Below, piece by piece: positions 44,392 to 49,983 of a stretch of DNA of 64,000 nucleotides. The notes beneath the pieces were generated by a model, which did no database searches, was not told the DNA's origin, and saw only the letters and a list, made by a program, of their open reading frames with translations. Source of the DNA: Pyrobaculum oguniense TE7. Lineage in GTDB: Archaea > Thermoproteota > Thermoprotei > Thermoproteales > Thermoproteaceae. The stretch spans positions 343,233-407,232 of the forward strand of contig CP003316.1 in NCBI GenBank assembly GCA_000247545.1. The letters run 5' to 3'. Within the stretch, counting starts at the first letter, position 1. Every line of letters begins with the position of its first letter. The position numbers and the translations under genes were made by a program.

Positions 44392-44835
44392 CCTGGGCAG
44401 GGCCTCTGGTAGCTGGCCGAGAACCACCACCTCCCTCGGTTGCGGATCGCCCCACAGGCACTTCTCCCACATAACCCTATACCTAGTATTACTCCTCGCT
44501 ACTCTGCGCACGTTTTCTAGCGTGAGCTCTTCTGGGTTCACCACAGCGCCCGGCCCGGCGTAGGCCAGCCTGTGGGCGTAGCCGACGTAGACAAGTTCCC
44601 CCGACGCGTTGGCCAAAACCTTAGCTATGGTGGACCTCCTACAGGTGGGCAGGTTCAGCACCCTGGCCCTGTACCCCAGCTTCGCCACCAGTGCCCCTAT
44701 CACGGCGAATTGGTAGGAAGAGCCAGGCGGGGGAGGAACGACGGTGACCTCGCCCAAGGGGCTGGCCACGTCGAATAGGAGGTGGGTGAAGAAGTCGCGC
44801 AGTACATACCCCCCGGCTACCTCTCCCAAGATCAT
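44353..44835 (-). CDS. hypothetical protein, 160 residues
   Basis: A soluble alpha/beta protein. Notable patterns are VVPPPPGSSYQFAVIGALV near residue 32 and LPTCRRSTIAK near residue 62. No family is recognised. It starts with a four-base overlap of the Dsb-like gene stop, so the two are an operon. Confidence 0.62.
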   Translation of the reverse strand: MILGEVAGGYVLRDFFTHLLFDVASPLGEVTVVPPPPGSSYQFAVIGALVAKLGYRARVLNLPTCRRSTIAKVLANASGELVYVGYAHRLAYAGPGAVVNPEELTLENVRRVARSNTRYRVMWEKCLWGDPQPREVVVLGQLPEALPRLEVWLAERLGRR

Positions 44836-45332
44836 AAGGCGGAGATAGCCTCTAGGACTTCGCTGGGTGACATGTAGCCGAAGTGAATGTAGCCCCTCCC
44901 CTTGGCGAAGTTGTAGAAAATTATGGTGGGGGTCCCGTAGACGCCCACTTCCTCAGCCAGCCTTTCGCACTCCCTCAAGTTGCCCTCGGGGCAGTCGCCG
45001 ACCTCAACCTTCTTCCCGCTGAAGGCCTCTGCGATGAACTTCAGCCTTTCATCCTCGGCCGTGCACCTCAGCTTCCTGTGAAGAGGCTCGGCGTCTTTGT
45101 GCACCACGTAGTCACACATGGCAAACGTGATGACGCCCCTACTCGCCATCTCCACAAGGGTTTCCTCAGCCTCTTTAAAAAGCCGCGCACAGAAGGGGCA
45201 TCTGAGGTCGAAGAAGACGAGCACTGCCTTATCGCTATTGCCTATTTTCACCGGCGCCATTTCGAGCAACCTCTTTACCACCTCTGTCTTAGTGACGGGG
45301 GTGAGCCTAGGCCCCCTCTTTCTGAATATCAC
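44832..45332 (-). CDS. cytoplasmic DsbA-like thiol oxidoreductase
   Basis: A 166-residue thioredoxin-fold protein with CPFC near residue 45 and the cis-Pro loop GTPTIIFY near residue 133. Extra Cys lie in the helical insertion. It has no signal peptide, in contrast to the Dsb-like protein at 7510, and probably acts on cytosolic disulfides, which are common in Pyrobaculum. Confidence 0.82.
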   Translation of the reverse strand: MIFRKRGPRLTPVTKTEVVKRLLEMAPVKIGNSDKAVLVFFDLRCPFCARLFKEAEETLVEMASRGVITFAMCDYVVHKDAEPLHRKLRCTAEDERLKFIAEAFSGKKVEVGDCPEGNLRECERLAEEVGVYGTPTIIFYNFAKGRGYIHFGYMSPSEVLEAISAL

Positions 45333-45365: not shown

Positions 45366-45424
45366 AAGCGGTGACGAGATTGGTCTTAGCTGAGCTGTGA
45401 AGACGGGAACGAGTTCCGATATAA
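45366..45424 (+). ncRNA. box C/D guide sRNA
   Basis: C box GTGACGA (45371-45377), 12-base guide GATTGGTCTTAG, D' CTGA (45390-45393), 3-base spacer, C' GTGAAGA (45397-45403), 12-base guide CGGGAACGAGTT, D-like CCGA (45416-45419). Same layout as the 37747 and 7277 RNAs. It lies just before the leaderless gene at 45445. A GTG at 45397 that could be read as a start belongs to the C' box. Confidence 0.8.
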
Positions 45425-45444
45425 ATCCCGGAAATTTTACTACC

Positions 45445-46176
45445 ATGATTAGAGTGGTGATACACCACACATGCAAGTCCTCCTACGCTCTGTACAAGGC
45501 CCTCAAGGGGGAGGCGGGGGTAAGCTTCGAGATGGCCACGACGCCATACTTCCCCTACCTGAGGCAGTACGTCCTGAGCGTCCCAGCCGTTTTTAAAGAC
45601 GGAGCGCTAGTGCTTTTAGACCCGGTGGAGCCTGGAGACGTCCTGGCGCTTAGAGATGGGAGGACTGAGAAGGAGCTGGATGTGGATGAGGCTGTGGAGA
45701 ACGCGGTTAGGGCCGTAATGGCCAGCCAAGCCATGTTGTCGGCCGTCATGTTGTACAAGTCGCTTAGGCCGGTGCTAGACCCCGAAATAGTCGCCGTTAC
45801 CTCGAGGGCGAGGTTCCACAAGCAGGAGCAAAAAGTTGAGCAAATCGCCAAGGCGCTTGCCGAGAGGGAGGCCGAAATCCTGGAAGAGCACTGGGAGCAC
45901 CTCGTGAAGCTCCTCGCATTTGGCCTCGTCAGAGAGATGTACTGGCTAGGCATAGACGTGGAGGAGGTGGAGAAGAGCCACGTGAAGATGTGGTTGCTGG
46001 CAAAGGCCACCGTGGGGCGGCTGGGTCTCCCCCACCCCGTCCCCAAAGTGCCAGAGGAGGTCGCCGACGCCGTACATGCAGTTCTCAAAGAGTCGGGGAG
46101 GAGGTATCTAGACAAAGTCATCGAGGAGCAGCAGATAATCCAGAGCGACGCAGAATTCATCTCCCTCGCGAAATAA
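45445..46176 (+). CDS. thioredoxin-fold-like protein, 243 residues
   Basis: The N-terminal half starts like a thioredoxin fold (VVIHHTCKSSYALYKAL) with a single Cys in place of CxxC and a later SVPAVFKDG cis-Pro-like loop. The C-terminal half is helical, with Glu- and Lys-rich segments. No precise family is recognised. I start at ATG 45445, about 24 bases behind a gatataaat element; the longer frame would run through a C/D sRNA. Confidence 0.7.
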   Translation: MIRVVIHHTCKSSYALYKALKGEAGVSFEMATTPYFPYLRQYVLSVPAVFKDGALVLLDPVEPGDVLALRDGRTEKELDVDEAVENAVRAVMASQAMLSAVMLYKSLRPVLDPEIVAVTSRARFHKQEQKVEQIAKALAEREAEILEEHWEHLVKLLAFGLVREMYWLGIDVEEVEKSHVKMWLLAKATVGRLGLPHPVPKVPEEVADAVHAVLKESGRRYLDKVIEEQQIIQSDAEFISLAK

Positions 46177-46260: not shown

Positions 46261-49200
46261 ATGTCAGTTAACAAGCTCGACGGCCGAGTGGAGCCTTTCT
46301 CCATGGAGAAGCTCAAAATCTCTATAGCCAAGGCGGGGGCCGAAGTGGGGGTTGATACAAACGGCGACGTATCCCTGGAGGTGAAGAAAGAAGTTGTGTG
46401 GAGCTGGGAGCTGGCCGACATGGTGCAACTAGAGCTCTTAAAACGCGCCATTGACCGTCCGGAGCTGGCGTTAGTAGCGCAATCCCACCTCCTGGGGCGG
46501 GTTTACAAGGAGGCCTTCGGCAAGGACTTCCTCAAGACAAAGGCGGGGTACGGCGAAAGGGCAGCGGCCCGGTTCAAGTCGCTGGTAGACGCAGGCTTGT
46601 TGAAGAGGGAGGCGCTGGAGTTCCTCCCCAAGTTTGAGCCTAGGCCTGATTTCGACCGCTCTCTCAGCTACAACGCCCTTAGGCTCTTCACCAACGGCAA
46701 CTACGCCCTTAGAGACCAGAACTTCAGGCTGGCGGAGACGCCCTCGATGGCGGCTTGGCGCGTGGCTACGGCCGTGGCAAGGGATTTAGAAAAGGCGCGG
46801 CTCTACTACGACTACATCACCAAGCTGAAGATAGTGCCGGCCTCGCCCTTCTGGTTCAACGCCTGGACGAAGAAGGAGATGTTCGCCTCCTGCTTCACGC
46901 TGGAGGTGGAGGACTGCCTCTCCTCCATCACCCACCCCGGAAGGTACTGCATATACGACGCCCTTGCCTACTCAGGGATAATCCAGCAACTGGGCGGCGG
47001 CGTCGGCTACGACTTCTCGCTGTTGCGCCCCGAGGGAGACGTAGTGAGGGGCTCAGTAGGCGTCGCCTCTGGCCCCATAAGCTTCATGCGGCTGTTCGAC
47101 ACAAACGTAGACGTTATTAAACAAGGCGGGAAGCGCCGCGGCGCCCAGATGGGAACCCTCCACGTGTGGCACCCCGACATCCGCAAGTTCATTAAGGCTA
47201 AGACCGGTGAGCTGAAAGACGCCCACCTCCAGAACTTCAACATATCGGTATTCGCAGACGACGCCTTTATGGAAAAGGCGCTAGGAATAGACCAGAACCC
47301 CAAGTACAAGCTGATAAACCCGAGAGCGTTTGTCGAAAAAACGGGGACCAAACCAGTTGAGTATGTTGACGAGAGGGAAGTCGCCATCCCCGAGGAGGCT
47401 GTTTGGGGCGAGATAAATGCCAAGGAGCTGTTCAAGGAGATCGCCCACGGTGCCTGGGACTCTGGCGATCCCGGAATGATATTTAAGTCAAACCTAAACG
47501 CCTCTAACCCGCTCCTAGGCGTTGAGATTGAAGTCGCTGGATACAAATTTAGATACGTCTGGAGGTCTGTAAACCCATGTGTCACCGGCGACACCAGGGT
47601 GTTGACTAGGGATGGCTATCTGAAGATATCTGAGGTGTACAAGAGGGCAAAGGAGAGGGGTGAGTTGTTCTTGATTTCAGAAGGCGTTGAGAAAGACGGC
47701 GATCCCAAGGGATACGCCGTACACGTCGTGGTGCCCTTGCTACAAGTAAAGACAGACGGCAGAACCGAACAGGTGGCCCAGCTGGTGAAGTCGGGAGTTC
47801 TTAAGGTGGGCACAAAGGATGTCTACTTGGTGGCCACTAAGGAGGGCTTCGAGATAAAGGCTACGGGCGACCACAAGCTCCTCGTGGTGAACTCTCTAGG
47901 GGAATATGAGTGGAGGCGTGTAGACGAGCTGAGGCCAGGCGACAAGCTAGTTGTGTCGATGGTGGATATCAGCAGAGCGGATATAGGCGAGGACACAATG
48001 CCGGCCAGCGTCGCATATCTCCTGGGCAGAGTTGTGGGAGACGGCTCTATCATTGTGGACAAACACAACAGGCCGCATATATACGTGTACTTTAGCAAAG
48101 AGGAGTTAGAGGAGGCGTTGGCTCTAATTGATATGCTGAGAGCGGAGTTTGGATCCGACATTTCCTATACGCTGAGCGAAAAGCGTACTGAAATCGCGCT
48201 GGAGATCTCAGGAACGGTAGCCCGCGCGATCGCCTCTATGGTTCCGGAGCTGATTCACTTGAAGAGAGACAAGATGGTTCCCGAAGTAATATTCGAAAGC
48301 AAGCCGGGGATTATCAGATGGTTCCTCCGCGGCCTCTTCGACGCCGATGGCACAATTGACAGAGACTATGCAATAAGGCTCACCTCAACGTCGAAGAGAC
48401 TGCTCCGGGAAGTGCAACAGCTTCTCCTCCTGTTCGGCATATACTCCGTCATTTATAAGCGGAGGAGAAAGGGCGGGATGTTCAAGTACGTAACAAAGTC
48501 CGGCGAAGAGAGGGTGTACAAGAGCTCTGAAGTGTACTACGAGCTGGTAATCAAGAACGAGTCTAGGTGTAGGTTTATGGAGAAGATAGGCCTCTCGCCG
48601 CGCAAATCCGCTAAGATCAGCTTGAAGAAGTGCAAGAGGGAGAAGCCTTTTGCCACCGTGGCTAGTGTTGAGTACATCGGCAAAGAGGTGGTATACGACT
48701 TCGGCGTTCCTGACTACCACAGGTACATCGCTGAGGGAATTGTAAGCCACAATTGCGCCGAGACTGTGCAAAATCCATTTGAGGTATGTAACCTTACGCA
48801 CATTAACTTAGTAAAGTTCGTTAAGGACAACTGTGGCGGCAGATCGTTTGAGGAGAAGCTTGGGTGTATAGACTGGGATGGTTTAGCCCAGGCGGCTAGG
48901 GTTGGGACCAGGTTCTTAGACGATGCCATTGACAGGAGCAAGACGGGGATAGAAGTCATTGACGAGATGAACGCAGCGACGCGCAAGAACGGCCTCGGTA
49001 TCATGGGCTTTGCCGAGTTGTTGATAAAGCTAGGTGTGCCCTACGCCTCTTGGGAGGCGGTGGAGCTGATAAACCGAATCATGGGCTGGATATATGTAAA
49101 TGCCCTCGACGAATCCGCCGAGCTGGCCAGGGAGAAAGGACCGTTCAGATTCTTCCACAAGTCCATATACGCCAGGGGCGAGATACCTGTGTTGAAGTTC

Positions 49201-49983
49201 CAAGACCACGTCTGGTCGCGCTGGGAGAGGATCAAGCGGGTGTATCCGCGCGAGTTGCAGGAGGCCGGGGACAAGCTGAGGGACATCACCATGAGGACGA
49301 GGCAGTGGCTGGGGCCCTATCTCGACAAGCTTTCTGAGAAGGTGAGGGGCGGGGTTAGGAACTCGGTGGTGCTCTCCATTGCCCCGACTGGTCGCACCAG
49401 CATACTGGCGGGCACCACCAGCGGGGTTGAGCCCGTATTCGCCTTGGCCTTTCTACGCAACGTCACTGTGGGGACGCTTGTGGAGTACTACGAGCCGGGG
49501 ATCGAGTTGTTGAAGTCGCGCGGGTTGTGGACGCCGCAGGTGAGGAAGGTGGTGGAGGAGACGGGCATGCTGAGAGACGCCCCGGTGCCGGAGGAGGTTA
49601 AGCACTTGCTGGCCACGGCGATGGAGATAGGTTGGCTGTGGCACGTGTTGATGCAGGCAAGCGCCCAGCAGTGGGTAGACCAAGGCATCTCCAAGACGAT
49701 AAACATGCCGGCCAACGCCCCGGAGGAGGACGTCTACTGGGCCTTCGCCTTCGCGTGGGCGGTCGGCGTCAAGGGCATAACTGTGTACCGCGACAAGTCA
49801 AAATCTGTCCAGGTGATATACACCGGCTTGAAGCAGGAGATAAAGAAGAAGCTGGCCGACACAAAGATCGTCGTGAAGCCCCTCGCCCTAGGAGCCTCCA
49901 TAGACGAGGCGGCTAACGAGGCCAAGCTCAAGGCGCTGGAGGAGGGAAAAGACCCCTACTGCAAAACTGGCGATTGCGGATAG
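46261..49983 (+). CDS. nrdJ: adenosylcobalamin-dependent ribonucleotide reductase (class II) with an intein
   Basis: A 1240-codon frame: 848 residues of class II reductase plus a 392-residue intein. The host part has an N-terminal ATP-cone-like region (KLDGRVEPFSMEKLKISIAK), the first redox Cys region (SCFTLEVEDC), the catalytic NPCAET motif that the intein splits, and the C-terminal CKTGDCG relay cysteines. The enzyme supplies deoxynucleotides and needs no oxygen or second subunit. A TATA-like aatatatc element lies about 24 bases upstream. Confidence 0.95.
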   Translation: MSVNKLDGRVEPFSMEKLKISIAKAGAEVGVDTNGDVSLEVKKEVVWSWELADMVQLELLKRAIDRPELALVAQSHLLGRVYKEAFGKDFLKTKAGYGERAAARFKSLVDAGLLKREALEFLPKFEPRPDFDRSLSYNALRLFTNGNYALRDQNFRLAETPSMAAWRVATAVARDLEKARLYYDYITKLKIVPASPFWFNAWTKKEMFASCFTLEVEDCLSSITHPGRYCIYDALAYSGIIQQLGGGVGYDFSLLRPEGDVVRGSVGVASGPISFMRLFDTNVDVIKQGGKRRGAQMGTLHVWHPDIRKFIKAKTGELKDAHLQNFNISVFADDAFMEKALGIDQNPKYKLINPRAFVEKTGTKPVEYVDEREVAIPEEAVWGEINAKELFKEIAHGAWDSGDPGMIFKSNLNASNPLLGVEIEVAGYKFRYVWRSVNPCVTGDTRVLTRDGYLKISEVYKRAKERGELFLISEGVEKDGDPKGYAVHVVVPLLQVKTDGRTEQVAQLVKSGVLKVGTKDVYLVATKEGFEIKATGDHKLLVVNSLGEYEWRRVDELRPGDKLVVSMVDISRADIGEDTMPASVAYLLGRVVGDGSIIVDKHNRPHIYVYFSKEELEEALALIDMLRAEFGSDISYTLSEKRTEIALEISGTVARAIASMVPELIHLKRDKMVPEVIFESKPGIIRWFLRGLFDADGTIDRDYAIRLTSTSKRLLREVQQLLLLFGIYSVIYKRRRKGGMFKYVTKSGEERVYKSSEVYYELVIKNESRCRFMEKIGLSPRKSAKISLKKCKREKPFATVASVEYIGKEVVYDFGVPDYHRYIAEGIVSHNCAETVQNPFEVCNLTHINLVKFVKDNCGGRSFEEKLGCIDWDGLAQAARVGTRFLDDAIDRSKTGIEVIDEMNAATRKNGLGIMGFAELLIKLGVPYASWEAVELINRIMGWIYVNALDESAELAREKGPFRFFHKSIYARGEIPVLKFQDHVWSRWERIKRVYPRELQEAGDKLRDITMRTRQWLGPYLDKLSEKVRGGVRNSVVLSIAPTGRTSILAGTTSGVEPVFALAFLRNVTVGTLVEYYEPGIELLKSRGLWTPQVRKVVEETGMLRDAPVPEEVKHLLATAMEIGWLWHVLMQASAQQWVDQGISKTINMPANAPEEDVYWAFAFAWAVGVKGITVYRDKSKSVQVIYTGLKQEIKKKLADTKIVVKPLALGASIDEAANEAKLKALEEGKDPYCKTGDCG
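47578..48753 (+). other. intein with LAGLIDADG homing endonuclease
   Basis: An in-frame insertion of 392 codons between Pro439 and the catalytic Cys of the reductase. It begins with Cys (CVTGDTRV), has TGDHKLLVV as block B, two endonuclease motifs LLGRVVGDGS and FLRGLFDADG, and ends VYDFGVPDYHRYIAEG...VSHN before Cys. Cys1, His-Asn and Cys+1 are all present, so splicing should work. The +1 residue is the radical cysteine of the reductase. Confidence 0.93.

What the first reader, a model, noticed from the sequence alone, without database searches (positions are those of the whole stretch)
47578..48753. Intein inserted exactly at the radical cysteine of class II ribonucleotide reductase
The 392-residue intein splits the NP|CAET motif, so the +1 nucleophile of splicing is the same Cys that forms the substrate thiyl radical. 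The host cannot lose splicing without losing the enzyme, and the endonuclease target is the most conserved part of the gene. Both LAGLIDADG motifs are intact, so it may still be mobile.
Basis: partly seen in the sequence, partly recalled or inferred. Interest (0 to 1): 0.6.

Follow-up and report, generated by a model that had tools for sequence, protein, structure and literature searches.

The report
Intein at ribonucleotide reductase radical cysteine
A self-removing protein insert (intein) sits exactly at the cysteine that the only DNA-precursor enzyme of Pyrobaculum oguniense uses to start its radical chemistry; the insert is real and of a known type, and related copies show that it has jumped between genera of hot-spring archaea, carrying neighbouring host DNA along.

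Summary
nrdJ (46261-49983) of Pyrobaculum oguniense TE7 carries a 392-aa class 1 intein at 47578-48753, between NP and CAET. The +1 Cys aligns with the finger-loop thiyl cysteine of Thermotoga NrdJ. It is the only intein and the only RNR found in the genome, so growth should need splicing.

Splicing residues and both LAGLIDADG motifs are intact. But the site is not the most conserved part of the gene, and the intein can be absent: 11 of 15 complete family nrdJ genes have the empty site.

Nor is the site new. At least 22 Thermoproteota NrdJ inteins sit at this NP|C site, and homologous inteins occupy the equivalent NL|C site in class Ib RNR of phage SPbeta and others.

New here is evidence of homing. 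The Thermoproteus sp. CP80 intein is 93% identical to that of Pyrobaculum sp. WP30 (dS 0.22, exteins 0.92), inside an ~855-bp donor-like tract: intergeneric homing with co-conversion. One empty-site relative has 5 changes in the 15 bp beside the junction. Across the allele, splicing residues stay while endonuclease residues decay in 8 of 22.

Verdict: a new member of a known intein allele.

The parts
46261..49983 (+). nrdJ, class II (adenosylcobalamin-dependent) ribonucleotide reductase, precursor of 1240 aa
   Evidence: TIGR02504 NrdJ_Z 659 bits against cut-off 400, PF02867 390.6 bits
46261..47577 (+). N-extein, 439 aa, ending ...SVNP (Pro at -1)
   Evidence: junction set by empty-site relatives
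47578..48753 (+). intein, 392 aa, class 1 with LAGLIDADG endonuclease domain
   Evidence: AlphaFold model pLDDT 91; PDB fold matches to intein endonucleases
47578..47580 (+). intein Cys1 (first splicing nucleophile)
   Evidence: invariant in 22 of 22 NP|C inteins
47863..47874 (+). block B T96-G-D-H99
   Evidence: T and H invariant in 22 of 22
47968..48630 (+). homing endonuclease region, about residues 131-351 (limits approximate)
   Evidence: LAGLIDADG_3 over residues 246-338; model; pairwise dN/dS 0.12-0.14
48016..48051 (+). first LAGLIDADG motif YLLGRVVGDGSI (acidic D155)
48322..48354 (+). second LAGLIDADG motif FLRGLFDADGT (acidic D255/D257)
48697..48699 (+). block F Asp374
   Evidence: invariant in 22 of 22
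48748..48753 (+). penultimate His391 and terminal Asn392
48754..48756 (+). Cys+1: splicing nucleophile and NrdJ finger-loop radical cysteine
   Evidence: aligned to position 322 of 1xje; conserved finger-loop thiyl Cys of RNRs described in PMC9531940
48754..49983 (+). C-extein, 409 aa, ending YCKTGDCG (C-terminal Cys pair)

Best explanation
It is a canonical class 1 intein with a two-motif LAGLIDADG homing endonuclease, a member of an old allele specific to the RNR finger-loop site (NP|C in class II, NL|C in class I). The precursor folds and Cys1 attacks the Pro(-1) carbonyl. The N-extein is transferred to Cys+1, Asn392 cyclises, and an S-to-N shift leaves the native NPCAET loop with Cys+1 free to become the thiyl radical (established class 1 chemistry, inferred here). 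The endonuclease cuts the empty nrdJ allele of other strains, and repair copies the intein together with flanking host DNA (supported by the mosaic gene of the related Thermoproteus sp. CP80, inferred for P. oguniense). The element persists because it spreads and because a host with one RNR tolerates only precise removal.
For: Exact junctions, with empty alleles in 11 of 15 complete family genes. All class 1 residues present; Cys1, block B Thr/His and block F Asp invariant across 22 homologues at the same site. Confident model: mean pLDDT 91, pTM 0.90. Best PDB folds are TliVMA, PI-PfuI, PhoVMA and PI-PkoII intein endonucleases. Patchy distribution: in the extein tree each of the four family carriers is sister to an empty gene. 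G006/G012 inteins 92.7% aa identical, dS 0.22, against exteins dS 0.92. Donor-like tract -241 to +614 around the site in G012: 100 of 131 informative sites donor-like within +0 to +600, against 81 of 386 outside; Fisher p about 1e-29, permutation p 5e-4. Sole RNR large-subunit gene found and no class III gene.
Against: No experiment: splicing and cleavage by this copy are not shown. Pro at -1 is reported to hamper the first splicing step in another intein (PMC13123727). No significant co-conversion tract is seen in P. oguniense itself (p 0.40-0.66), so its own acquisition is old or its donor unsampled. The CP80 mosaic rests on one draft contig, and both tests treat informative sites as independent.
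Confidence: 0.93

Rival explanations
1. The P. oguniense copy still splices but no longer homes: a fixed, vertically kept relic whose endonuclease has lost activity despite intact motifs.
For: No recent co-conversion signal in G000. Its intein is at least as diverged from the other three copies as the exteins are (dS about 1.5 against 1.0-1.45). Decayed endonucleases occur in 8 of 22 copies of the allele.
Against: Both catalytic motifs are intact. The endonuclease region has a dN/dS of 0.115-0.14 against the other family copies, about as low as the splicing domain; a dead domain should relax.
Confidence: 0.3
2. The intein is a useful switch: splicing at the radical cysteine couples RNR maturation to temperature, redox state or folding, so the host keeps it.
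For: Pro at -1 and Cys at both junctions could make splicing temperature- and redox-sensitive (inference; conditional splicing is reviewed in PMC4031507). In Aquifex the intein in the R2 subunit raises iron loading and activity (PMC8772380).
Against: Most close relatives lack it (11 of 15). The distribution looks like invasion and loss rather than retention.
Confidence: 0.08
3. The insert is a permanently retained domain of NrdJ, or an artefact of a frameshift or misassembly, rather than an intein.
For: None found beyond the open frame.
Against: All intein blocks are present, empty alleles are exact, and independent homologues lie at the same point.
Confidence: 0.01

Closest known systems
   Same: Same insertion point, 71% identical over the full length, all motifs intact
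   Different: P. oguniense branches first among the four (midpoint-rooted tree); WP30/CP80 show recent transfer, P. oguniense does not
Thermococcales-type B12-dependent RNR with inteins (profile NF006207/PRK08332)
   Same: The intein aligns full length (1-392) to profile positions 860-1241 at 313.6 bits, and one stretch of the precursor (248-986) runs across that part of the profile, so the same site appears to be occupied there
   Different: The profile is longer (1684 positions), consistent with further inteins; its origin in Pyrococcus/Thermococcus RIR1 is recalled, not checked sequence by sequence
SPbeta bnrdE (class Ib RNR) intein, with Brochothrix phage A9 and Miltoncostaea oceani plasmid nrdE inteins
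   Same: Full-length homologues (26-28% identity over residues 1-392) at the equivalent position SNL|CSE; the +1 Cys is the corresponding class I cysteine. A9 gp128 is also the best viral fold match
   Different: Class Ib host enzyme, Leu at -1, ends GN not HN
Mth RIR1 mini-intein (Methanothermobacter)
   Same: Recalled: class II RNR host, natural Pro at -1 and Cys at +1
   Different: Recalled: no endonuclease (134 aa). Not available to the tools, so site identity not tested here
NrdJ-1 split intein
   Same: Same RNR finger loop
   Different: Inserted one residue later, NPC|SEI with +1 Ser; split (PMC13123727)
Aquifex aeolicus NrdB (R2) intein
   Same: Intein between catalytic residues of an RNR in a hyperthermophile (PMC8772380)
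   Different: Small subunit, between iron ligands, not at the thiyl cysteine

Membership tests
Class 1 intein | Nucleophile at residue 1 (Cys/Ser) | tested here: met
   Cys1
Class 1 intein | Block B TxxH | tested here: met
   T96-G-D-H99
Class 1 intein | Terminal Asn with penultimate His and +1 Cys/Ser/Thr | tested here: met
   HN|C
Class 1 intein | HINT (horseshoe) splicing fold | tested here: met
   AlphaFold pLDDT 91; Foldseek to TliVMA and PI-PfuI inteins, E down to 8e-22
Class 1 intein | Splices in vivo or in vitro | not testable with these tools
   Needs expression or mass spectrometry
LAGLIDADG (DOD) homing endonuclease | Two LAGLIDADG motifs with acidic residues | tested here: met
   LLGRVVGDG and LRGLFDADG; LAGLIDADG_3 86.8 bits
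LAGLIDADG (DOD) homing endonuclease | Cuts the empty host allele | not testable with these tools
   Indirect only: co-conversion tract in a relative
RNR large-subunit intein allele at the thiyl cysteine | Insertion immediately before the finger-loop Cys | tested here: met
   Alignment to 1xje position 322; empty-site relatives
RNR large-subunit intein allele at the thiyl cysteine | Homologous inteins at the same site elsewhere | tested here: met
   22 Thermoproteota copies; phage and plasmid copies
Class II RNR (NrdJ) | NrdJ_Z model above cut-off | tested here: met
   TIGR02504 659 bits against cut-off 400
InBase allele rir1-b | Exact InBase site definition | not tested
   InBase not held; the Halobacteria paper lists rir1-b as the RIR1 allele with most relatives outside Halobacteria but the passages read do not give the site residues

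The most novel reading that the evidence does not exclude
The intein has become a maturation switch. With Pro at -1, Cys at both junctions and the radical cysteine masked until splicing, it keeps class II RNR silent until temperature and redox conditions suit adenosylcobalamin radical chemistry, so this site would be favoured for more than target conservation.
Probability: 0.06. Interest if true: 0.65.

Novelty: new member of a known kind. Interest (0 to 1): 0.32.

Why it matters
The single feature is ordinary intein biology, but the allele is a clean natural series. It shows empty sites, intact mobile inteins, inteins with decayed endonucleases and a mini-intein, all at the catalytic cysteine of an essential enzyme. 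It includes one recent jump between two genera of hyperthermophilic archaea with its co-conversion tract still visible. That makes intein homing in crenarchaea directly testable, and shows that an intein can move host codons of an essential gene between genera.

Tried and rejected
(1) 'Most conserved part of the gene': a conservation scan rejected it within the family. (2) Co-conversion in P. oguniense itself with three possible donors: best segments lie just upstream of the site (-85 to +5) but are not significant, p 0.40-0.66. (3) A viral or plasmid carrier in archaea: the IMG/VR scan gave one distant hit only; phages and plasmids gave only bacterial homologues at or below 28% identity among the rows listed. 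(4) A second RNR that would relax dependence on splicing: none found. (5) AlphaFold with the 4-sequence alignment was poor (pLDDT 49.5) and was replaced by a 22-sequence one. (7) P. arsenaticum, the closest relative (about 96% nucleotide identity, PMC3558965), was not identifiable in the collections, so its site could not be read. (8) A literature search for intein with RNR and Pyrobaculum gave nothing on this intein.

Full report
Identity of the source. The chromosome that holds the window is 2,436,033 bp in a genome of 2,452,920 bp in two contigs; the difference, 16,887 bp, and the chromosome size are the published sizes of Pyrobaculum oguniense TE7 (PMC3558965). That paper does not mention an intein or ribonucleotide reductase.

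The observation. The ORF at 46261-49983 encodes a class II ribonucleotide reductase, NrdJ (TIGR02504 659 bits), interrupted in frame by 392 codons at 47578-48753. The junctions are NP|CVTGD and VSHN|CAET. Eleven of fifteen complete nrdJ genes of the family lack the insert and read NPC[AS]E... without a break, most of them as NPCAETVQNPFEVCNL, so the junctions are fixed by comparison and not only by motif. Alignment to Thermotoga maritima NrdJ places the +1 Cys at position 322 of PDB 1xje, in the NPCGE loop. The literature describes a conserved finger-loop cysteine as the site of the thiyl radical in all characterised RNRs (PMC9531940). That residue 322 is the Thermotoga radical cysteine is established knowledge of that structure and was not re-derived here.

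What it is. Pfam and NCBIfam models for intein splicing and LAGLIDADG endonucleases exceed their cut-offs. AlphaFold with 22 homologues gives mean pLDDT 91 and pTM 0.90. The closest solved folds are the TliVMA, PI-PfuI, PhoVMA and PI-PkoII intein endonucleases. Cys1, T96, H99, D374, H391 and N392 form the standard class 1 splicing set, and both LAGLIDADG motifs keep their acidic residues. It is the only match in the genome to the intein N-terminal model.

Dependence of the host. The genome has one hit for the RNR barrel domain, this gene, and none for the anaerobic class III enzyme. If these searches are complete, the cell's deoxyribonucleotide synthesis depends on splicing. This does not mean that the element cannot be lost: precise absence is the common state in the family.

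Distribution and mobility. In the extein tree the four family carriers are each sister to an empty-site gene (G000-G001, G005-G004, G006-G008, G012-G016). The intein of Thermoproteus sp. CP80 (G012; named) is 92.7% identical to that of Pyrobaculum sp. WP30 (G006), with dS 0.22 against 0.92 for their exteins. Around the site the CP80 gene is a mosaic. Far upstream and far downstream it follows its congener G016, but from -241 to +614 it follows WP30; the upstream edge is less clear than the downstream one. Of informative sites within 600 nt downstream, 100 of 131 are WP30-like, against 81 of 386 outside the tract (Fisher p about 1e-29; sites treated as independent). Trees of the two gene halves place G012 with its congeners upstream (100/100) and with the WP30 lineage downstream (89/93). 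The simplest reading is homing from a WP30-like Pyrobaculum into a Thermoproteus, with co-conversion of about 0.85 kb. The mosaic enters and leaves within one gene on one contig, which makes an assembly chimera unlikely but not excluded. For P. oguniense the same test found no significant tract.

Target site. Within the family the site is moderately, not maximally, conserved: 17-47% of windows of 5-31 residues are at least as conserved. The empty gene G004 differs from its close sister G005 (which carries the intein) by five bases within the 15 bp just downstream of the junction, giving CSETH in place of CAETV. G004 alone differs from the other five genes compared at four of the five positions and carries a unique base at the fifth. 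At the rate in the gene core such a cluster at a place named beforehand has p about 3e-5. It may be a scar of intein loss or a target that resists the endonuclease; this is not settled.

The allele at large. A search of 398 Thermoproteota genomes gave at least 18 further NrdJ inteins at the same NP|C point, 22 in all. All 22 keep Cys1, the block B Thr and His, and the block F Asp; 20 end in HN, while two end in LD. Eight of the 22 have lost the acidic endonuclease residues or, in G369 (157 aa), the whole domain. Splicing is thus kept while the endonuclease decays, as the homing-cycle model predicts.

Beyond archaea. The inteins of SPbeta bnrdE, of Brochothrix phage A9 and of a Miltoncostaea oceani plasmid nrdE match over residues 1-392 and lie at SNL|CSE, the equivalent point of the class Ib enzyme. 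The A9 protein is also the best viral fold match, followed by a Pandoravirus RNR. The allele therefore crosses RNR classes and is found in archaea, bacteria and phages. That inteins prefer conserved, functional sites, because only precise loss is tolerated, is published (PMC2814812), and inteins within catalytic sites of RNR subunits are known (PMC8772380).

Mechanism, shown and inferred. Shown by sequence: junctions, catalytic sets, predicted fold, transfer in a relative, purifying selection on both domains (endonuclease dN/dS 0.115-0.14 and splicing domain 0.13-0.20 between P. oguniense and the other three copies; dS near saturation). Inferred: that this copy splices, that it cuts empty nrdJ, and that the spliced enzyme is active. 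Pro at -1 is a caution, since it is reported to disrupt the first splicing step in the NrdJ-1 intein (PMC13123727); all 22 archaeal members of this allele nevertheless carry it, which suggests adaptation, perhaps aided by high temperature.

Verdict. A real, well-placed, probably active intein of a known allele. The claims of maximal conservation and of impossible loss do not. The intergeneric homing tract and the altered empty site are the parts worth a specialist's time.

Noticed in passing
L015/L081 (Thermoproteus sp. CP80 nrdJ): Mosaic nrdJ: about 855 bp around the intein are Pyrobaculum-like in an otherwise Thermoproteus-like gene.
   Followed up: yes
L010/L085 (G004 nrdJ, empty site): Five substitutions in two codons (AGT against GCC, CAC against GTC) within 15 bp downstream of the intein site, against its close intein-bearing sister G005; possible loss scar or resistant target.
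   Followed up: partly
L039 and L040 (G047, G095): NP|C inteins that end in Leu-Asp instead of His-Asn before the +1 Cys (non-canonical C-terminal Asp).
   Followed up: no
L034/L064 (G226) and L049/L077 (G250): NrdJ genes with an intein at a different site, ending VVHN or IIHN before TGFSFS; in G226 in addition to the NP|C intein.
   Followed up: no
L012/L087 (G015): nrdJ of a genome labelled as the second genus groups firmly with the G004/G005 Pyrobaculum lineage (100/100), suggesting whole-gene transfer.
   Followed up: no
window 45397-46176 (+): ORF directly upstream of nrdJ with no Pfam match; its start (MIRVVIHHTCKSSYALYKAL) looks thioredoxin-like by eye, a possible redox partner of NrdJ.
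   Followed up: partly
window 44832-45332 (-): Small protein with a CPFC motif that looks like a DsbA/thioredoxin-fold oxidoreductase, close to nrdJ on the other strand.
   Followed up: no
[quoted passage not shown]
   Followed up: no
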